64,000 nucleotides of DNA, from NCBI RefSeq assembly GCF_013409935.1, contig NZ_JACCCO010000002.1:744001-808000 (forward strand), in the 5' to 3' direction. Position 1 is the stretch's first letter. Each line of letters begins with the position of its first letter. The DNA is from Streptosporangium sandarakinum. Lineage in GTDB: Bacteria; Actinomycetota; Actinomycetes; Streptosporangiales; Streptosporangiaceae. The notes beneath the pieces were generated by a model that ran no database searches, had not been told where the DNA came from, and saw nothing but the letters and a program-made list of their open reading frames with translations. Positions 7,379 to 24,712 of the stretch are shown here, in pieces. Both the position numbers and the translations under genes were made by a program.

Positions 7379-8227
7379 ATGATTCTGGTCACCGGGGCGA
7401 CCGGCAACGTCGGCGGGCACGTCGTCTCCCAGCTGCTGGACAGGGGCGTCGCCGTACGCGCGCTGACCCGCGACCCCGCCGCGGCGGCCCTGCCGGACGG
7501 CGTCGAGGCGGTGCGGGGCGACCTGGCCGACCCCGCCTCCCTGGACACCGCGCTGGACGGGGTGGAAGCGGTGTTCCTGCTCTGGCCCACGCTGGCGGCC
7601 GACCACGCCGCCGCGGCCGCCGTCGAGAGGATCGCCGGACGGGCGCGCCGCGTGGTCTACGTCTCCGCGCGCGGCGTGTCCGACGACCTGGAGCGGGCGC
7701 CGGGCTCGATCCTGGGCTCCCACGCCTACCTGGAGCGTCTGATCAGGGGGGCCGGCGTGGAATGGACGTTCCTGCGTCCCGGCGGGTTCGCGGTGAACAC
7801 CCTGCTGTGGGCGCCGGAGATCCGCGCCACGGGCGTGGTCCGCAGGTCCCACGGGGCGGCGGGCCGGGCGCTGATCCACGAACGGGACATCGCGACCGTC
7901 GGGGTGCTCGCGCTGACCGGGGACGGCCACGCCGGGGCGGTCTACGAGCTGACCGGGCCGGAGACCCTGACCCAGGCCGAGCAGGCGGCCGCCATCGGCG
8001 AGGCGATCGGCCGCCCGGTGCGCTGGGAGGAGGTCCCCCCGGAGAACACGCTCAGGGACCTCGTGGCGGGCGGCATGCCGGCCGCCATGGCCGAGGGCAT
8101 CGTCGCCGCCCACGACGCGATGGTGACGTCACCCGAGACGACCACCGCCACGTTCGAGAAGGTCACCGGGGTCCCGGCGACGCCGTTCCGGCAGTGGGCG
8201 ATCGACCACGCCGGCGACTTCCGCTGA
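7379..8227 (+). CDS. NmrA-like NAD(P)-binding reductase/epimerase
   Basis: A cytoplasmic atypical short-chain dehydrogenase (282 aa) with the Rossmann signature MILVTGATGNVGGHV, then an NmrA-like body (AVRALTRDP, VRGDLADPASL, FLRPGGFAVNTLLW). There is no clear SDR catalytic YxxxK, as is common in the NmrA group, which may act as quinone reductases or redox sensors. The start follows GAGGAAAG. Streptomyces SoxR regulons include a gene of this type, and the MerR/SoxR-like promoter upstream supports induction by redox-active compounds (inference). Confidence 0.85.
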   Translation: MILVTGATGNVGGHVVSQLLDRGVAVRALTRDPAAAALPDGVEAVRGDLADPASLDTALDGVEAVFLLWPTLAADHAAAAAVERIAGRARRVVYVSARGVSDDLERAPGSILGSHAYLERLIRGAGVEWTFLRPGGFAVNTLLWAPEIRATGVVRRSHGAAGRALIHERDIATVGVLALTGDGHAGAVYELTGPETLTQAEQAAAIGEAIGRPVRWEEVPPENTLRDLVAGGMPAAMAEGIVAAHDAMVTSPETTTATFEKVTGVPATPFRQWAIDHAGDFR

Positions 8228-8342
8228 CCACCGCCCTCCCGGACACCGTCCTCCCAGGCTCATGCCCACCGGGGGCGGGCACGAGCCTGGGAGGATGCCG
8301 GCCGCGCCGGGTCCGTACCCGTCTCCCGCGCCCCGGCCACCG

Positions 8343-9584
8343 TCAGGCGGTCACCGCGACGCCGACCGGTTTGGCGGGCCCGGCCGGCTCGGGGACGGCG
8401 GTACGGCGGGCCACGGCCGGCCCCATCGCCACGACCGCGATCCCGGTCGACACCCCCGCCACCAGGGCCGACCACCAGAGCACGGCCGGGTCGAAGCTCG
8501 TGTAGACCGCGGCGCCCACGGTCAGCGCGATGAACCGGGCCAGCCCCCACGTCCACTGGAAGGCGCCCTGGTAGCGGCCGCGGGCGTGGGCCGGCGCCAG
8601 GTTCGCGACGATCGCGGCGGCGATCCCGCCGACGCACGCCTCCCCGACCGACCACAGCAGCACGGTCAGCGCGTACTCGACCGGCCGCTCGGCCACTCCG
8701 GTCAGTGCGACGCCGACCGCGATCAGCACGCTCGCCGCGCCGAGCACCGGAAGCTGCGGAAGCCGGGTGAGCAGGCCCGTGGCGACCGGCTGGAGCACCA
8801 CGACCACCACCGCGTTGACCATGGCCATGAAGCCGTAGACGGCCGGGGACAGCCCGTCGTCGCGAATGGCGAGGGGCAGGGCGACCTCAGTGAGCGAGTA
8901 GACCAGGAGTTGGACGCCGAACAGCGGCAGCAGGGCGAGCAGCAGCCGGTCGCGTAGCACCACCCCGTAGCCCGCGCCCTCGGTCTCCGGGGCCCGGCCC
9001 GAACGGTCGGCCGGCAGTAGGACCGCGATGACGAACGCGACGGCGAGCGAGGTGGCGGCGTCCACTCCGAACAGCAGCCAGTACCCGCGCTCGGCCAGGA
9101 ACCCGCCGAGCACCCCGGCGACCGCGGTGCCGACGTTGATCCCCCAGCCGAACAGCGAGTACGCCGCCCGGCGCCGCTCCGGCATGACCGTGTCGGCCAT
9201 CATCGCGTACACCGCCGGGGTGACCAGCGCCCCGGCCGCGCTGAGCAGCGCCGCGGCGAGCGCCAGCGTGACCAGTCCCGGCGCCGCGAACAGCGCTCCG
9301 GCGGCGGCGGCGTTGCCGGTCAGACCGATCAGCATCGTGGGCCGCCGGCCCAGCCGGTCGGCGAGCAGGCCGCCCAGCATCGGGCCGACGAGGTTCCCGG
9401 CGCCCAGCGCGCCCAGGACGTAGGGGGTCTGCTCGGCGGAGACGCCACGGGTGGCCAGGAAGAACACCAGGAACGGACCGACCAGGTAACCGAGCCGGCT
9501 GACGACGGTCCCAGTGAAGAGGACCCAGACGGGCCGCGGGAAGCCGCCGAACTGGACGGCCAGGGCGGAACGCAGAGAGGACAT
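8343..9584 (-). CDS. MFS transporter (drug/proton antiporter type)
   Basis: A 12-helix major facilitator protein (413 aa) with the MFS loop motif GGLLADRLGRRPTM between helices 2 and 3 and a second-half loop HARGRYQGAFQW. It probably exports a small molecule. I used the ATG at 9584 (MSSLRSAL); 20 more codons upstream are open, but that start lies inside the operator region. It is divergent from the DUF5937/ArsR regulator. The same gene pair recurs at 34.1-36.5 kb. Confidence 0.88.
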   Translation of the reverse strand: MSSLRSALAVQFGGFPRPVWVLFTGTVVSRLGYLVGPFLVFFLATRGVSAEQTPYVLGALGAGNLVGPMLGGLLADRLGRRPTMLIGLTGNAAAAGALFAAPGLVTLALAAALLSAAGALVTPAVYAMMADTVMPERRRAAYSLFGWGINVGTAVAGVLGGFLAERGYWLLFGVDAATSLAVAFVIAVLLPADRSGRAPETEGAGYGVVLRDRLLLALLPLFGVQLLVYSLTEVALPLAIRDDGLSPAVYGFMAMVNAVVVVVLQPVATGLLTRLPQLPVLGAASVLIAVGVALTGVAERPVEYALTVLLWSVGEACVGGIAAAIVANLAPAHARGRYQGAFQWTWGLARFIALTVGAAVYTSFDPAVLWWSALVAGVSTGIAVVAMGPAVARRTAVPEPAGPAKPVGVAVTA

Positions 9585-9622
9585 GGCGCAGATCCTGCGC
9601 GTTCCGCTCGAAGGAGACCATT

Positions 9623-9644
9623 GATTAAGCTGAGGCTGAATCAT
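9623..9644. promoter_or_regulatory. Imperfect inverted repeat between MFS and ArsR genes
   Basis: TGATTAAGC-TGAG-GCTGAATCA has 9-bp arms with one mismatch. It lies in the 80-bp divergent gap between the exporter and its presumed regulator, suiting an ArsR-type operator. Confidence 0.45.
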
Positions 9645-9664
9645 CGGCCACCGGAGGAGCGGGC

Positions 9665-10726
9665 ATGCGGACCGAACTGGCCTTCTCGACGGGCGACCTG
9701 GCGCACACCCGTTTCGCCGTGTCCCCGATGTGGGAGGTCGTGACCAGCTTCCGCGTCCTGGCCGGGCCCTCCGTGCCGGAACCGCACCGGCCGTGGGCCG
9801 AACAGGTGCTGCCCCGGCTGCGGGCGGCGGGCCTGGACCGCGGCCGGCTCGCCCGCCTGGTCCCCGCCACCGGCTACCTCGCCGACTTCCTCACCCCCAC
9901 CCCGGCCACGCCGTTCCCCACCCTGGAGGCCGAGCTGGCCGCGATCCGGGCGACCTCCGCCGAGCAGGCGCGCCGGGACCTCGCCGTCCTGGCGGCCGAG
10001 CGGACGCGCCAGGGACCCGGCCACCCGGCGGTGAAGCGGGACCCCGGCGACCCGGCGGCGGGACGGCCGCGGCGGGGTTCCGGCGGTCCGGCGGTCGTGC
10101 CGTCCCGGCGCGACCCGGCCGAGGACCTCGACCGGGTGACGGCCGAGATCGAGACCTATTGGGAGCTGGCCCTCGCCCCCTACTGGGCCCGCATCCGCGC
10201 GACGCTGGAGGCCGACGTCTTCCACCGGGCCCGGCAGGTGGCCGAGTACGGCGCCGCCCACCTGCTCAACGACCTGCACGCCTCGGTGAGCTGGGGCGAC
10301 GACACCCTGCGGCTCGTCAGGCGGCACTGCACGGTCACCCGGGAGCATGCCAGCCCGGGGCTGGTCCTACTGCCCTCGGTGTTCTCCTGGCCGCACGTAC
10401 TCACCAGGGTGGCCGCGTCCGAACCGCTGCAGATCGCCTACCCGGCCCGCGGGTTCGGGTCGGTCTGGGAGCGACGCGTGGGCGCGGACGCCGACGCCAT
10501 GGCCGCCGTGCTCGGCCGGTCCCGCGCGCTGCTGCTGGCCGAGCTGGAGTCGCCGGCCTCCACCACCCAGCTCGCGCGGCGGTCCGGGCTGTCGGCGGCG
10601 GGGGTCTCCCAGCACCTGACCGTCCTGCGCGACGCGGGCCTGGTCACCGCCCACCGGGCCGGTCGCTCCGTGCTGTACGCCCGTACGGCGGTGGCCGACT
10701 CCCTCCTCGCCGCCGCCCCCGCCTGA
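9665..10726 (+). CDS. DUF5937/ArsR-type transcriptional regulator
   Basis: A 353-aa two-part regulator. The N-terminal about 270 residues are a DUF5937-like domain beginning RFAVSPMWEVVTSFRVL. The C-terminal about 75 residues are an ArsR winged helix (LLLAELESPASTTQLARRSGLSAAGVSQHLTVLRDAGLVTAHRAGRSVLY-like). A Pro/Arg-rich linker around residues 115-145 is not shared with its paralog at 35520. The start at 9665 follows GGAGG. It is divergent from the MFS gene, which it probably represses. Confidence 0.87.
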   Translation: MRTELAFSTGDLAHTRFAVSPMWEVVTSFRVLAGPSVPEPHRPWAEQVLPRLRAAGLDRGRLARLVPATGYLADFLTPTPATPFPTLEAELAAIRATSAEQARRDLAVLAAERTRQGPGHPAVKRDPGDPAAGRPRRGSGGPAVVPSRRDPAEDLDRVTAEIETYWELALAPYWARIRATLEADVFHRARQVAEYGAAHLLNDLHASVSWGDDTLRLVRRHCTVTREHASPGLVLLPSVFSWPHVLTRVAASEPLQIAYPARGFGSVWERRVGADADAMAAVLGRSRALLLAELESPASTTQLARRSGLSAAGVSQHLTVLRDAGLVTAHRAGRSVLYARTAVADSLLAAAPA

Positions 10727-11238
10727 CCCGCCCGCGCAACCGAAGAAGGCCCAGATCGGCATGCCGACCCGGGTGTTCTTTCCGTGCACCGCCGGGGACT
10801 CGAACCCCGGACTCGCTGCTCAGGAGTCAGTGGTTCGTCCTCTCGTGCCACCATGCCTCGTCGATCGGTGCTGGACTGTACGACTTTCAGCCGGTTTACG
10901 TGCCACCCAAGGCCATGCCATGACACCCCATTCCGCGGCATCGGGCGACCCCCGAGCAGCCATGGGGCCACGAAACCTGTCACAAGAGGCCGGGGTGGCG
11001 GGCAAGGCATCCGCAGAAATCACCGATGATGTGCTTCGAACTGCGGAAACGCCCTCCGCAAAATGCGGCGACCAACAAGCCGGCGAAGAGCTTTTGATGG
11101 TCAGGGCACCAAGCGGTAACGTACGGGCAGGTAATAGTTCCCGAACAACCTTGTTCGAGCCCGGCTCACATATGTTCTGCCCGTAAATGACAATTTGAGG
11201 CTTAAATAACCTTCCAGCCGCTCTGCGAAGGAGATTAG
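10727..11238. other. Intergenic region at the left edge of the island
   Basis: 512 bp without a convincing gene. It holds the 47-nt tRNA-Lys-like remnant at 10784-10830. From about 11150 to 11215 it becomes A/T-rich compared with its surroundings and probably carries the promoter of the next gene. Confidence 0.6.
10784..10830 (-). repeat. tRNA-Lys 3'-half remnant (att-like direct repeat)
   Basis: 47 nt matching 16422-16468 (3' half of the intact tRNA-Lys) at 41 of 47 positions, ungapped and in the same orientation. It includes the T-arm (GGGACTCGAACCCC on the plus strand) and anticodon arm, but the D-arm and 5' acceptor strand are missing. It cannot fold as a tRNA. The layout is that expected of the distal att copy left by an element integrated at a tRNA 3' end. 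Confidence 0.65.
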
Positions 11239-11652
11239 GTGGACCCTCTTATCCTGACATTCGGGACGGCTCTGGTAACGGCGATGGCCACCGACGCCTG
11301 GCAGCAGGTCCGGTCAGGGGCCGTGGCGCTCTGGCAGAAGGCGCGTCCGGACCAAGCCGACGTCGTCGAGCAGGAGCTGACCGATGCCCGCACGCTCGTC
11401 CTCGCCGCCAGGGACGAGGGCGACACCGACACCGAGCGGGCGCTGGCAGGTTCCTGGCAGATCCGGTTGCAGCAACTCCTCCGTGACGACCCCGCGCTCG
11501 CTCAGGAGATACAGCGTGTCCTCGACGAGGTACTCAAGCCGGCGCTGGCCCCGGCGTCGCCGCAGGGCAGAACCGTCACGATGACGGCCACCGCCCAGGA
11601 CCAAGGGCGCGTCTACCAGGCTGCGGGCGACCAGCACTTCACCGAGCATTAG
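11239..11652 (+). CDS. Small VYQA-motif protein preceding an nSTAND ATPase
   Basis: A 137-aa protein of unknown function. The N-terminus (MDPLILTFGTALVTAMATDAWQ) could be a weak amphipathic or membrane-associated helix. The middle is acidic and helical (DVVEQELTDARTLVLAARDEG), and the C-terminus ends TAQDQGRVYQAAGDQHFTEH. The terminal VYQA..DQ.F motif is echoed near the N-terminus of the next protein (NSRVYQAEVQQFF), suggesting a shared interaction element. The GTG at 11239 follows GAAGGAGATTAG. It ends 26 bp before the nSTAND gene, so the two are probably cotranscribed. I recognise no domain with known activity. Confidence 0.75.
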   Translation: MDPLILTFGTALVTAMATDAWQQVRSGAVALWQKARPDQADVVEQELTDARTLVLAARDEGDTDTERALAGSWQIRLQQLLRDDPALAQEIQRVLDEVLKPALAPASPQGRTVTMTATAQDQGRVYQAAGDQHFTEH

Positions 11653-14637
11653 GCGGACAGGAAGGGTCTTGGGCGGATGTGTCCGACCATCGCATGAGCC
11701 GCGCGCAACCGCCGCTTCCAGAGGAGGAGGCGGCCGGTTCGGGGATGGTGCGCGCCGGGGATGAAGTAATCCACTTCAACGTACGGGCCGACGGTAACAG
11801 CAGGGTCTACCAGGCCGAGGTCCAGCAGTTCTTCCTGACATCCGGGAAGGCGCCTCCGGGCGCCGTCTCCACGATCACCACCTGCCCGTATCCCGGCCTT
11901 TCTGGCTTTGACCGACGGTACGCCGACTGGTTCTTCGGCAGGGGTTCCCTGCTCTCCGAGCTCATAGCCCGCCTGGACCGCCGGCAGGTGTCCGGCGGCA
12001 TCCAGGTGGTCGAAGGGAAATCGGGAGCGGGCAAGAGCTCACTGCTGCAGGCCGGTCTCCTGCGCGAGCTCGACCTGGATCGCGTCCCGGGGTCGAGCCG
12101 ATGGCACAAGTGCGTGTTCACTCCGTCCAATCGGCCGGTAGAGGCGCTGACAGAACAGCTCGCGCAGGTCACAGGCACGGAGGATCCGGATGAGTGGACG
12201 TGCCGGCTCGCCGCCGCGGATGGTCCGCGCCTGGTGGTGGTCATCGATCAGTTCGAGGAGCTGTTCACGCTCTGCGACGACGAAGAGCAACGGCGGCGCT
12301 TCGTCCAATTGATCGTCGGCCTGTCCGGCTGCCGGGACGGCCGGCGGCCTGCCGCGCTCGTCGTGATCGGCGTGCGCGCCGACTTCTATCCCGCCCTCAG
12401 CGACCATCCCGAGCTGCGCTCCGCCTTCCACGATGGGTCGCTGCGCGTCGGGGCGATGTCGGAGGCCGAACTGCGCGAGGCCGTCCTCCGCCCGGCGGAG
12501 AAGGTGGGACTGAGCATCGAGCGCGGCCTCGTCGAGCTGCTCTTCGCCGATCTGGGAGTCACGTCGGGTGAGACGGGGCCCGGCTCATACGAGGAAGGGC
12601 GTCTCCCCCTGCTAGCGCACGCACTGCGTACGACCTGGCAGCAGAGGGACGGCGACACGCTCACCGTGGACGGCTACAAGCAGACCGGACGCATCTACGG
12701 AGCCCTGGCCAAAACCGCCGACCAGGTCTACGACCGACTGCCCCCGGAGGGAGGCCGACTGGCCGAGCGGCTGCTCGTCCGGCTGGTCAAGGTCGGGGAG
12801 CAGAGCGAGGACGCCCGCCGCCGCATCCTGTACGACGAACTGGTCGCAACCAGTGGTGATCCCCCGCTGGCCGCGGCGGTGGTGGACCAGTTCACCTCTG
12901 CCCGGCTGCTGACCCGCCACCGGGACACTGTCGAGATCACACACGAGGCACTCCTGCGCGACTGGCCCCGGCTGCATACGTGGCTCAACACCGACCGCAT
13001 CGGCCGGCTGAGCCGGCAGAAGCTGGAAGAGGCCGCGAGCACCTGGGAGAAGCAGGATCGGGATCCGTCGTTCCTCTACCGTGGCGCGAACCTGGAACAG
13101 ACGCGGGAAATCGACCCTGCCGAACTCAGCACCGCCGCGCGGGCATTCCTGACCGCCTCCCGAGAGAGCGATCTCCGGGAACGAAGGATCCGGTTCGCAG
13201 CCAAGATCACCATCGCTGTGCTCGTCCTGATCCTGCTCGCCACGACCGGTGTCGTCATCTGGCAAGGGCTGGAAGCAGCGCAGCAGCGAGACATGGCCAG
13301 AGCCAGCCGGATCATGGTTGAAGCGGATCGTCAGCGCGAGTCCGATGCGTCGCTTTCCGCGCAACTCGCCTTGGCTGCCCATCGTGTGAAGGCGGACGAC
13401 GACACATTCACGCGGGTGATCAGCGAGGCGAACAGCGCGTTGCCCACACCGCTGCTCGGGCACGCGGATGTGGTCAACTCGATCACGTACAGACCCGACG
13501 GCCGCGTGCTCGCCAGCGCGGGCGACGACCTGACGATCCGGCTGTGGGACCTGTCCGACCCGGCCCGGCCCGTCCCGCTGGGCCGGCCGATCGGTGTGCC
13601 CGGCGCCGCACGCAGGGAGCGCTCCCCGCAGCCCATGGTGTTCAGTCCGGACGGGCATACCCTCATCGGCTCCGCTGGTGACGAGACGATCCGGGCGTGG
13701 GACGTTTCCGACCCGGCCCGGCCCGTCCCGCTGGGCCGGCCGATCACCGGTAATGGCCGCGGCGTCACCGCCATGGCCCTCAGCCCTGACGGCCGCACAC
13801 TCGCCAGCGGAGACGACGTGGCGATCCGGCTGTGGGATGTCACCGACATGGCCCGTCCCCTTCCGCTGGGCCGGCCGCTGACCGGGCACGCCCACGTGAT
13901 CGACGCCCTGACCTTCGTGGCGGACGGACATGCTCTGGCCGGCGCCGACGGCCAGACGATCCGGCTGTGGAACCTCGACCGCCCGGCCAGACCCACTCTG
14001 CTGGGAGTGATGAAGCACACCGGTGTCAAGGACCTGGCCTCGGTGGGAGAGACGCTGGCCAGCGCGGGCGAGGACGAAACCATCCGGCTGTGGAACATCT
14101 CCCGGCCGGAGCGTCAGCTGATCACCGAGGCGGGCCGGCTCACCGTCGAGGGGCCCGGCGGTCCCAGCGCGATCGCCTTGTCTCCCGACGGCCGCACACT
14201 CGCCGTTGCCGACAGCGGCAGCCGATCCATCGTGCTCTGGGACGTTTCGGACCCGGCACGTCCCACCCGCCTCAGTCCGTCGCTCACCGGCCATACGTCG
14301 GGCGCCTCGTCCCTGGCGTTCGGCCCGGACGGGCGGACGCTGGCCAGCGCGAGCTACGACCGATCGCTTCTGCTGTGGAACCTGCCCGGCTCGCGGCTCG
14401 CCATTGAGGGCAGCGCGATGGCGTTCGGCCCGGGCGGGCGGATGCTGGCAAGCCTGCATGACATAGGCTCCCTCCGGCTCTGGGATGTACCAGATCAGGG
14501 CAGCCCACGTCCTCGAGGCCGACCACTTCGGAGCCAGGCACGCGGTATCGATGCCGTGGCGATGAGCCCTGACGGACGGATGCTCGCCATCTGCGACAGC
14601 GACGGGCACACCGTGTTGTGGGACCTCTCCGACCCGG

Positions 14638-15530
14638 CTAAGGCGTGTCTGATAATTCGGCGTGGCGGAGCCAGAGCAGCAGGGAAGCGATGGTGACGCC
14701 CGCGAGGTAGCGGCCGGCGAGCTTGTCGTAGCGGGTGGCGACGGCTCGCCACTGCTTGAGCTTGGCAAAGCACCGCTCCACCACGTTACGCCCCTTGTAG
14801 GCCGCGGCATCGAAGGCGGGCGGGCGGCCTCCGCGGCTGCCCTTGCGCTTGCGGGCGGCGATCTGATCGGACCGCTCAGGGATGACCGCGCCGATGCCGC
14901 GCCGCCGCAGATGCAGGCGGATCTTCCGAAAGGAGTAGCCCTTATCCGCCACCAGCCGGTCCGGCCGGGTACGGGGACGGCCGATGCGACGGCGCAGCCG
15001 GAAGGTGCCCATCACCGCTTCGAAGGCGGTGCAGTCGTTGATGTTGCCGCCGGTCAGGTGCAGGGCAAGCGGCAGGCCACGGGCTTCGGTGATCAGATGG
15101 AGCTTGGTGGTCAGCCCGCCCCGGGATCGGCCGAGGGCTTGTCGTCTTTGGGAGGCTTTCGCGTCGATCGTCCCTCCGCCGTCCCCCTTTTTCGGGCGCC
15201 GGCAGCGTGCTGGTGGGCTCGGGCGATGGTGGAGTCGACGCTGACGACCAGCTCCACCGCACCGAGGGAGTCGTCTTTGACCTGCATCTCCTCCAGCAGG
15301 CGGGTCCAGGTGCCGTCTTCCTCCCAGCGTTTGAACCGCTCGTAGCAGGTCTGCCAGGGACCGTAGCGCTCCGGTACGTCGCGCCAGGGCGCTCCGGTCC
15401 GCAACCTCCACAAGATCCCGTTGATGACCGCGCGGTGATCCCGCCAGGGCCGTCCCCTGCCATCCTTGGCGGGCAGCAGGGGCTCGATCCGCTGCCAGGC
15501 CTTGTCAGTCAGCTCACCTCGTCGCACCAC
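14638..15530 (-). CDS. IS5-family transposase, two frames joined by -1 frameshift
   Basis: A DDE transposase in two overlapping frames. OrfA (15530 to 15111) starts MVRRGELTDKAWQRIEPLLP and has the first Asp in VVSVDSTIARAHQH. OrfB supplies the second Asp in LVADKGYSFRK and the Glu in GRNVVERCFAKLKQWRAVATR. The frames meet at A5G5 (15183-15192 on the minus strand), where a -1 slip on AAA-AGG gives a continuous product of about 297 aa. Frameshift expression is typical of the IS427-like part of IS5. The final stop TAG (14638-14640) is made by the flanking target TA plus the host G, not by the element. Confidence 0.9.
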
Positions 15531-15577
15531 GAGGAATCATCTAACCGCACCACCGAGATCATTTATCAGACACGCCT
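14641..15577 (-). mobile_element. IS5-family insertion sequence, 937 bp
   Basis: Terminal inverted repeats are perfect for 15 bp: AGGCGTGTCTGATAA at 14641-14655 and its complement at 15563-15577. The element is flanked by a duplicated TA (14639-14640 and 15578-15579). It carries a single frameshifted transposase and sits inside the WD40 part of the nSTAND gene. IRs, TSD and transposase all look intact. Confidence 0.95.
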
Positions 15578-16382
15578 TAGCCCCAGACCCTTGAGCTCAC
15601 CGCTGCCCGCACCGGAAACAGGGGCACTCTCGGCGGCGTTCGGCCCAGACGGTCGAACCCTGGCCGTGGGGAGCGGCCAGGGAACGGTACGGCTGTGGGA
15701 CGTCTCCGATCCGGCCCGCCCCGTGCCCCTAGGACAGCCCATCACCGCCCCCGCGCAGATGGTGTACGCCGTGGCGTTCAGCCCGGACGGCGCCACCCTG
15801 GCAGCCGCGGCCGACGAGCTGATGGGGACGAGCATCGATCAGTCCATAGCGCTCTGGCGGGTCTCCGATCCGGCCCACCCCACGCCCTGGGGCAGACCGC
15901 TTCCCGGCCACACCGGCTCCATCCTTACGTTGGCGTTCAGCCCGGACGGGCGAACGTTGGCCAGCGGCGGAGACGATGGAGCCATCCATCTGTGGGACGT
16001 CTCCGATCCGGCCACGGCCGCGCCCAAGGGCGAACCGATTCTCGGACACGTCGGCTCCATCACCGCGGTGACGTTCAGGCCAGACGGACACACCTTGGCC
16101 CTGACCAGCTCGCACCGGGAGACGTCACTGTGGTCTTTGGACGTGGATCTGGCCGCCCGACGCATCTGCGGCATCACAAAGGGGAGTCTCACGACCGCCA
16201 AATGGCGGGGGTACTTCGGCGACGACATTCCGTACACCGCAGCGTGCCCATGACGGTGATCGGAATCACGGACGCACATCGATCATGACGCTGACAAGAT
16301 CACGAAAGACGGGCAGCCGACGAGCGACCATCGTGATCAACGCCGGGCGCGAGGCGCCGTCGAGGTGATCACCGAATGGAGA

Positions 16383-16413
16383 AACCCCAGGTCAGTGATA
16401 CTGACCTGGGGTT
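16383..16413 (-). terminator. Hairpin downstream of tRNA-Lys
   Basis: A perfect 14-bp stem (AACCCCAGGTCAGT / ACTGACCTGGGGTT) with a 3-nt loop, 10 bp beyond the tRNA 3' end. There is no strong U-tract. Confidence 0.75.
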
Positions 16414-16422
16414 CCTCGCTGG

Positions 16423-16496
16423 TGCGCCGCCAGGGACTCGAACCCCGGACCCGCTGATTAAGAGTCAGCTGCTCTAACCAACTGAGCTAGCGGCGC
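16423..16496 (-). tRNA. tRNA-Lys (anticodon CUU)
   Basis: A 74-nt cloverleaf read on the minus strand: acceptor GCGCCGC/GCGGCGC with discriminator A, D-arm GCTC..GAGC, anticodon arm GCTGA-CTCTTAA-TCAGC (anticodon CTT), T-arm CGGGG-TTCGAGT-CCCTG. CCA is not encoded. Its 3' end faces the nSTAND island, where a degenerate copy of its 3' half lies at 10784. An identical tRNA is at 24639. Confidence 0.97.
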
Positions 16497-16924: not shown

Positions 16925-17293
16925 ATGCAGCCTGATCTCTGGAACTACCGATCCGACATCTACGGTGACGACAAGACCCTGGATCTCGCGGGCTATCACG
17001 TCGAGGCGACCGACGGGAAGATCGGCTCCGTGGACGAGGCGACCTACGACGTCGGTGAGAGCTACATCGTCGTCGACACCGGCCCGTGGATCTTCGGCAA
17101 GAAGGTCATGCTGCCGGCCAGCACGGTGACCCGGATCGACCCGCAGGAGCGCAGGGTCTATCTGGCCCGTACCAAGGAAGAGATCAAGAACGCTCCGGAG
17201 TTCGATGAGGCGACCTTCAAGGAGCCGACCTACCGCAAGACGGTGGGCGACTACTACGGCCGCTTCCCCTACGACGGGCCCGGCACCTTCTGA
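16925..17293 (+). CDS. PRC-barrel domain protein
   Basis: A 122-aa cytoplasmic protein with one PRC-barrel fold (residues about 20-80: LAGYHVEATDGKIGSVDEATYDVGESYIVVD, then KKVMLPASTVTRID-like) and an acidic/aromatic tail (YYGRFPYDGPGTF). PRC-barrels occur in RimM and photosynthetic reaction-centre H subunits; in actinomycetes stand-alone forms of this size are stress-linked but uncharacterised. The ATG at 16925 follows GGGAG. Frames beginning upstream at 16640 include non-coding leader. A strong terminator follows. Confidence 0.88.
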   Translation: MQPDLWNYRSDIYGDDKTLDLAGYHVEATDGKIGSVDEATYDVGESYIVVDTGPWIFGKKVMLPASTVTRIDPQERRVYLARTKEEIKNAPEFDEATFKEPTYRKTVGDYYGRFPYDGPGTF

Positions 17294-24379: not shown

Positions 24380-24597
24380 GTGGACTCCTCCTTCGGGGAA
24401 TGGAGGCGGGCATGTCCAACGGCCGACGGATAGCACGTTATTAAAAGTAAACCTTACTAACAATTAGTATCACCGCGCCAGACATTCCCACGTGTTCCCC
24501 GCGGCTCCCTCGGCTCCCGCCCGGCGGCATCGTCCCCGCTCGGCCGCGGCGCCGGTCCACGTGATGGCGCGCGCCGCCGGAACGCCCGTCGATGAGG

Positions 24598-24630
24598 AAA
24601 GCCCAGGCCGGATGATCCGGCCTGGGCTTT
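24598..24630 (-). terminator. Hairpin downstream of the second tRNA-Lys
   Basis: A perfect 15-bp stem AAAGCCCAGGCCGGA / TCCGGCCTGGGCTTT with a 3-nt loop, 9 bp past the tRNA 3' end. Confidence 0.8.
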
Positions 24631-24638
24631 CCCGTCGG

Positions 24639-24712
24639 TGCGCCGCCAGGGACTCGAACCCCGGACCCGCTGATTAAGAGTCAGCTGCTCTAACCAACTG
24701 AGCTAGCGGCGC
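24639..24712 (-). tRNA. tRNA-Lys (anticodon CUU), second copy
   Basis: 74 nt, identical base for base to the tRNA at 16423-16496, with the same loops and anticodon CTT. Each copy has its own, different, downstream hairpin, so they are separate transcription units. Confidence 0.97.

What the first reader, a model, noticed from the sequence alone, without database searches (positions are those of the whole stretch)
10784..16496. tRNA-Lys-bounded island carrying a two-gene nSTAND module
Seen: the intact tRNA-Lys at 16423-16496 has its 3' end toward the island, and a 47-nt ungapped direct repeat of its 3' half (41/47 identical) lies at 10784-10830. Between them are only a small VYQA-motif gene and an nSTAND/WD40 gene with an IS inside. 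Known: site-specific elements integrate at tRNA 3' ends and leave the distal half copy in exactly this orientation. Inferred: the module arrived as, or is what remains of, an integrated element, and may be a conflict/defence system of an undescribed type. No integrase remains in the island.
Basis: partly seen in the sequence, partly recalled or inferred. Interest (0 to 1): 0.72.

Follow-up and report, generated by a model that had tools for sequence, protein, structure and literature searches.

The report
tRNA island carrying broken amyloid-NLR pair
An actinomycete carries, spliced into the end of a lysine tRNA gene, a small island with a two-gene sensor-and-effector pair that fits a recently described kind thought to act by amyloid signalling; here a jumping gene has cut the sensor.

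Summary
The 47-nt partial tRNA-Lys copy at 10784-10830 is the far end of an insertion. The closest congener (G001) has the empty site: the 43 nt outside the copy join the intact tRNA directly (198 of 213 alignment columns identical). None of 14 congeners with the orthologous site has island DNA in the 6 kb on that side, which differs between nearly all of them, while the other side is syntenic. One congener has other cargo at the same tRNA behind an exact 46-nt copy.

The cargo is probably not an undescribed type. It fits bacterial amyloid-signalling NLR pairs (Bell/BASS): a small protein ending in GRVYQAAGDQHFTEH, then an nSTAND1-WD40 receptor with SRVYQAEVQQFF near its start. Across 52 non-redundant pairs of this family, cognate motifs match far better than permuted ones (48.0 vs 32.5, p<=1e-4); two controls are flat. 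Partners were exchanged repeatedly.

Caveats: the window's own match is weak (131 of 20,000 shuffles); an IS5 element splits the receptor; amyloid, death and defence are untested; Bell membership could not be tested by profile or structure. Some relatives pair the effector with membrane proteins that lack a recognised NLR domain.

The parts
10741..10783 (.). ancestral 3' flank of tRNA-Lys with its terminator-like repeat, now on the far side of the island
   Evidence: 39 of 44 alignment columns identical to the tRNA 3' flank of the empty site in G001; the flank now beside the intact tRNA gives 24 of 45; alignment
10784..10830 (-). distal att-like partial copy of tRNA-Lys (3' half), decayed
   Evidence: 41 of 47 to tRNA-Lys; a congener has an exact 46-nt copy near the same tRNA
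11239..11652 (+). Bell-like effector gene (name by analogy), 137 aa, GTG start
   Evidence: over 40 homologs only three Pfam matches under E 0.01, taken as spurious; homologs next to NLR genes
11605..11649 (+). effector-side C-terminal motif GRVYQAAGDQHFTEH
11679..14696 (+). nSTAND1-WD40 receptor, 5' part; the reading frame ends inside the IS
   Evidence: PF20703 residues 70-463 E 3.9e-116, WD40 eight stretches
11799..11834 (+). receptor-side motif SRVYQAEVQQFF (residues 41-52)
   Evidence: local match to the effector tail, score 34; 131 of 20,000 shuffles reach it
14638..15580 (-). IS5-family insertion sequence (two overlapping transposase frames) inside the WD40 region
   Evidence: NF033580; five full-length, practically identical copies in the genome, this one included
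15581..16253 (+). remaining 3' part of the WD40 region
   Evidence: WD40 four stretches in 15570-16250
16379..16419 (.). flank with a terminator-like inverted repeat, brought in by the island and now beside the intact tRNA
   Evidence: 24 of 45 against the G001 flank
16420..16496 (-). intact tRNA-Lys(CTT), proximal boundary of the island
   Evidence: ARAGORN

Best explanation
10784-16419 is the remnant of a site-specific element that integrated into the 3' end of tRNA-Lys(CTT), rebuilt the tRNA, and left the old 3' half and terminator on the far side (shown by the empty site). Its cargo is a Bell/NLR-type amyloid-signalling pair (class supported by comparison; mechanism inferred). The WD40 domain of the nSTAND1 receptor would sense a trigger, the NTPase domain would oligomerise, the clustered N-terminal motifs would form a cross-beta seed, and this would template the matching C-terminal motif of the small effector. 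The effector would then damage the membrane and kill the infected or stressed cell. In this genome an IS5 copy splits the WD40 region, so the pair is most likely inactive. No integrase was found, so the island is most likely stuck.
For: Island; another cargo at the same tRNA behind an exact 46-nt copy. Pair: cognate tail-to-N-terminus score 48.0 against 32.5 (sd 1.34, best of 10,000 permutations 37.9) in 52 pairs under 70% effector identity, and 41.0 against 26.9 in 28 pairs under 50%; controls with two other 32-residue effector segments 22.4 vs 22.1 and 21.0 vs 21.3. Most nSTAND1 alignments start at residues 48-69 of the receptor, so its N-terminus is not part of the conserved domain, and the 11 nSTAND1 relatives printed, none with an effector gene in the stretch held, show no such motif where I read them. 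The partner class changes many times on the effector tree (one clade for the nSTAND1 pairs rejected, p 7.3e-5). Description of the known class: PMC7889193 section 9, passages of PMC8086366 and PMC9815663.
Against: The window's own motif pair is one of the weaker ones: score 34, and 18 of the other 41 receptors score higher with its tail; the receptor motif lacks the G and D of the usual AGRD. The best local alignment of the two whole proteins lies elsewhere (score 55). 58 of 137 effector ORFs had no P-loop partner within 1.5 kb downstream. 44 of 75 P-loop pairs pass their own shuffle test at p<0.01, 31 do not. The effector's hydropathy is modest: window maximum 1.10, mean of maxima 1.30 in 40 homologs, under the usual 1.6 for a membrane helix (recalled), and periodicity between about residues 37 and 90 is mostly not helix-like. 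No structure could be predicted. No profile of Bell or BASS1-10 was at hand. No PADLOC match for the effector or for 40 family members.
Confidence: 0.72

Rival explanations
1. The 10784 copy is an old tRNA pseudogene and the genes arrived independently of it.
For: The copy is decayed (41 of 47), and no integrase was found.
Against: In G001 the sequence outside the copy (10741-10783) directly precedes the one tRNA-Lys there, 198 of 213 columns identical over the joined flank. A tandem pseudogene would have left its own copy at the empty site. G004 has the same geometry with an exact 46-nt copy.
Confidence: 0.04
2. The pair is a regulatory or developmental module in which the shared motif is an ordinary docking peptide and the small protein an adaptor, not a killer.
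For: No toxicity or defence has been shown. Some relatives have the motif on membrane, TPR or MgtE_N proteins. The effector's hydropathy is modest.
Against: The two motifs resemble each other across 52 pairs, which fits self-templating better than docking of unlike partners. The distribution is patchy, 60 of 394 class genomes. The described class is held to be death-related (PMC7889193), though there too as a hypothesis.
Confidence: 0.22
3. The island is what is left of a larger element whose other genes were lost, and the pair was one passenger among several.
For: Only 5.6 kb lies between the repeats; DNA on the 3' side of this tRNA differs between nearly all congeners (2 of 91 pairs above 0.5 aligned); 8228-10740 is a further indel next to it.
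Against: The boundaries are defined by the repeat, and I recognised no remnant of other genes in 10831-11240 or 16250-16420 in a six-frame reading by eye.
Confidence: 0.25

Closest known systems
Bell/NLR pairs with bacterial amyloid signalling sequences (BASS1-10; Dyrka et al. 2020, J Mol Biol, not held, known here through PMC7889193, PMC8086366, PMC9815663)
   Same: Adjacent genes; short motif at the C-terminus of a small protein and near the N-terminus of an NLR; actinomycetes. The [AG]RD of the family's motif recalls the 'ARD' that PMC9815663 names for BASS2.
   Different: Carried on a tRNA-Lys island; receptor split by an IS; receptor-side motif degenerate; assignment to a BASS number and to the Bell domain not tested.
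Actinomycete integrative elements at tRNA 3' ends (pSAM2/AICE type; recalled)
   Same: Target is the 3' end of a tRNA gene, a direct repeat of 46-47 nt, reconstitution of the tRNA.
   Different: No integrase, excisionase or replication family in the four main island ORFs scanned.
Fungal HET-s / HeLo amyloid NLR signalosomes
   Same: Works like: an NLR-side motif templates an effector-side motif (PMC7889193).
   Different: No sequence homology claimed; no Pfam match of the effector family to such a domain.
Bacterial NLR-related anti-phage proteins (Avs, bNACHT; recalled)
   Same: STAND NTPase receptor.
   Different: Effector in a separate gene; no PADLOC match beyond E 0.027 to mad8 for the receptor; no phage evidence.

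Membership tests
Bell/BASS amyloid NLR pair | small gene directly beside an NLR gene | tested here: met
   11239-11652 and 11679-14696, PF20703; 75 of 137 effector ORFs, window included, have a P-loop gene within 1.5 kb
Bell/BASS amyloid NLR pair | same short motif at effector C-terminus and NLR N-terminus | tested here: met
   family level: 52 pairs, 48.0 vs 32.5, p<=1e-4; window alone weak, 131 of 20,000 shuffles
[quoted passage not shown]
Bell/BASS amyloid NLR pair | motif matches one of the BASS1-10 profiles | not testable with these tools
   founding paper and profiles not held
Bell/BASS amyloid NLR pair | motif forms amyloid that cross-seeds between partners | not testable with these tools
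   bench assay
tRNA-integrated island | direct repeat of the tRNA 3' end at the far boundary, same orientation | tested here: met
tRNA-integrated island | empty site in a relative | tested here: met
   G001
actinomycete integrative and conjugative element (AICE) | integrase and replication/transfer genes within the repeats | tested here: not met
   no such family in the four main island ORFs scanned
known anti-phage system | match to a described defence family | tested here: not met
   PADLOC: none for the effector; receptor only E 0.027 to mad8

The most novel reading that the evidence does not exclude
The effector of this pair is a general, plug-in death effector whose amyloid tail is driven by interchangeable sensors, and some of those sensors are not NLRs at all. 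In 7 of 37 non-redundant loci whose next gene has no recognised P-loop, that gene encodes a protein with the cognate motif and predicted membrane segments; four of the seven start on the effector's stop codon. An NTPase-free membrane sensor would be an unusual trigger for an amyloid signalosome, and mobile islands such as this one would spread the parts.
Probability: 0.45. Interest if true: 0.62.

Novelty: new member of a known kind. Interest (0 to 1): 0.42.

Why it matters
It turns an 'undescribed defence module' into a likely member of a class that can be tested, and gives a clear case of an amyloid-type NLR pair on a tRNA-integrated island, with the empty site in a sister species. The cognate-matching test with controls is quantitative support for motif-to-motif signalling in actinomycetes, and the membrane-protein partners in relatives, if confirmed, would widen what can trigger such effectors.

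Tried and rejected
Integrase remnants: a six-frame reading of 10831-11240 and 16250-16420 by eye showed nothing I could name. Phage or plasmid origin: no effector homolog in 50,697 phage records at E 0.001, none confirmed among 78 pattern matches in viral contigs; 10 of 72,556 plasmid records, 8 of them Streptomyces, one an 11.85-Mb Nonomuraea record that is clearly a chromosome. tRNA enrichment of relatives: 7 of 80, taken as chance from recalled tRNA density, not formally tested. A literal motif search in papers: the 15 listed of 213 looked unrelated. Herpes_UL49_2 and GspL_C Pfam matches (E 0.004-0.022) rejected as spurious. The P-loop pattern was widened twice; p<=1e-4 each time.

Full report
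Setting. The window lies in a 7.65-Mb genome of 4 contigs. One congener, G006, has a contig of the same length (1,220,526), with the effector homolog at the same place, as a record of Streptosporangium carneum, so the genus is most likely Streptosporangium (inference).

The observation. tRNA-Lys(CTT) is at 16420-16496 and a second one at 24637-24712. The copy at 10784-10830 gives 41 of 47 against both and against a third place (C2:557409) that I did not check. Between copy and tRNA are the 137-aa gene, the nSTAND1-WD40 gene and an IS5-family element. The IS has five full-length, practically identical copies in the genome, this one included, so the insertion is probably recent (inference).

The island is real. 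I located the orthologous tRNA by its neighbour on the 5' side (16925-17293, a weak PRC-barrel match) in the 15 held congeners and fetched the regions. 14 of 15 have tRNA-Lys(CTT) beside it (in G012 with about 3 kb of extra DNA between); the fifteenth, G002, gave only a 60% match without a tRNA and was dropped. In the closest congener, G001, the 43 nt outside the partial copy sit directly on the tRNA: the joined flank is identical in 198 of 213 alignment columns. The outer 43 nt match the G001 flank at 39 of 44, the flank now beside the intact tRNA at 24 of 45 (alignment). No island DNA was found in the 6 kb on the 3' side of this tRNA in 14 of 14. Among the 14, that side has a median aligned fraction of 0.00 (2 of 91 pairs above 0.5), against 0.70 on the 5' side (74 of 91 above 0.5). 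This tRNA is therefore a recurrent site of exchange. G004 shows a second case: an exact 46-nt copy 12.3 kb from the intact tRNA, enclosing other cargo (regulators, a chitinase with an NPP1 domain, a transporter), with no integrase among the 10 ORFs scanned (41 ORFs of 120 aa or more overlap the stretch). The window's island has none in its four main ORFs.

What the pair is. The small protein has no informative Pfam, NCBIfam or PADLOC match, and 40 family members give none in Pfam or PADLOC and, as a profile, none in the PDB. It is patchy: 6 of 60 relatives, own genome included (at E 0.001), and 60 of 394 genomes of the class. In homologs the C-terminal motif reappears near the N-terminus of the next gene's product and changes together with it: for example ARQYIAGRDMNIAES with ARQFIAGQDLYLTT, or HSHIIQLGQGTQSI with HASVIQLGQGTQHI.

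Test of cognate matching. One search used 134 loci: the window, L086-L092, L123-L242 and nine shorter loci, less three that duplicate others. There were 137 effector ORFs: 4 within much longer frames, 75 with a P-loop within 1.5 kb downstream, 58 without. After dropping short rows and effectors at 70% identity or more, 52 pairs remained. Mean cognate score 48.0; permuted 32.5, sd 1.34, best of 10,000 permutations 37.9. Under 50% identity, 28 pairs: 41.0 against 26.9. Controls with the last and first 32 residues of the effector core: 22.4 against 22.1 (p 0.29) and 21.0 against 21.3 (p 0.74). Two earlier versions with narrower P-loop patterns gave 46.6 against 30.1 (42 pairs) and 47.8 against 29.8 (43 pairs). 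Among the nSTAND1 pairs the effect is weaker (58.0 against 51.3, p 0.015, 13 pairs).

Results against. The window's own pair scores 34; 131 of 20,000 shuffles of the receptor N-terminus reach that, and 18 of the other 41 receptors score higher with its tail. Its receptor motif lacks the usual G and D. 31 of 75 P-loop pairs fail an individual shuffle test at p<0.01. The whole-protein alignment of effector and receptor peaks elsewhere. The effector's hydropathy maximum is 1.10, and 1.30 on average in 40 homologs, below the usual threshold for a membrane helix (recalled). Periodicity is helix-like at residues 1-36 and 79-114, but mostly not between, and beta-like in the tail; this is weak and mixed support.

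Modularity. Most nSTAND1 alignments begin at residues 48-69 of the receptor, a few earlier or inside the domain. One search printed 12 of the 20 loci: the window's own, with its effector gene, and 11 relatives without one in the stretch held; several of these look helix-turn-helix-like or caspase-like at the N-terminus (my reading, from no call). On an effector tree of 82 rows, with partners labelled by similarity to the window's nSTAND1, the 14 nSTAND1 rows need 7 changes (at least 6 forced by starred branches), and one clade for them is rejected (p 7.3e-5). The window's effector groups with that of Nonomuraea jabiensis (85/81), also an nSTAND1 pair. The tree has few columns and some long branches.

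Partners that are not NLRs. Of 37 non-redundant effectors whose next gene has no recognised P-loop, 7 (L126, L131, L134, L157, L160, L223, L242) are followed by a protein with a cognate match of 46 or more and a predicted membrane segment by hydropathy; in L134 the segments lie far from the motif (residues 287 and 328). For the 37 as a set the cognate score is 38.6 against 25.5 permuted (p<=1e-4), but part of that comes from genes that look like NLRs with variant P-loops or a second receptor gene (L153, L154, L174, L200, and L212, partly masked). 14 of the 37 pass their own shuffle test at p<0.01. Four of the seven start on the effector's stop codon (distance -1). On the tree the seven need 6 changes, at least 3 forced. 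Ten such partners, soluble ones included, were scanned: TPR in L128, MgtE_N in L129, two sub-threshold DUF matches in L157, nothing in the other seven at E 0.01.

Mechanism. Shown: island, pair architecture, cognate motifs at family level, split receptor. Inferred: sensing by WD40, oligomerisation, cross-beta templating, membrane damage. The class is described in PMC7889193 (section 9 read; passages) and in passages of PMC8086366, PMC12261475 and PMC9815663; passages of PMC12881547 only cite the founding paper, which is not held. Membrane killing by Bell is presented in PMC7889193 as a hypothesis.

Verdict. Membership in Bell/BASS is likely, but its domain and motif profiles were not testable here.

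Noticed in passing
gene after the effector in L126, L131, L134, L157, L160, L223, L242; also L192, L220, L221, L224: Effector homologs followed not by a recognised NLR but by a protein with the cognate motif; membrane segments were predicted for the first seven, and read by eye only in the other four.
   Followed up: partly
L253:5145-17555 (congener G004): An exact 46-nt tRNA-Lys copy and the intact tRNA enclose 12.3 kb of unrelated cargo at the same tRNA; no integrase in the 10 ORFs scanned.
   Followed up: partly
window 8228-10740: MFS transporter and DUF5937/ArsR-type regulator are absent from the closest congener between the same flanks: a second indel just outside the island. The best regulator relatives (83%) lie on other contigs than this tRNA in G009 and G011.
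   Followed up: partly
L285 (G000:C4:5500-11000), IS at C4:7686-8626: A practically identical copy of the IS sits inside a long repeat array with 61-nt spacing that looks like a CRISPR array; next to it a stretch of 181 nt, about three units, is duplicated exactly.
   Followed up: partly
window 24539-24712 and L254 (G001): Second tRNA-Lys(CTT); in G001 the alignment ends at 24539 and its tRNA lies about 1.6 kb further away than in the window, a further length change beside a tRNA-Lys.
   Followed up: no
L086:10475-13011 (congener G006): A decayed effector homolog, with its motif in a shifted frame that runs on into an NB-ARC-like protein (RVYQTSGDQHINEH; label by reading), facing a second, intact effector gene.
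   Followed up: no
L083 (congener G012), 7614-10996: About 3 kb of extra DNA between tRNA-Lys and the PRC-barrel-like gene, on the side that is syntenic in most congeners.
   Followed up: no
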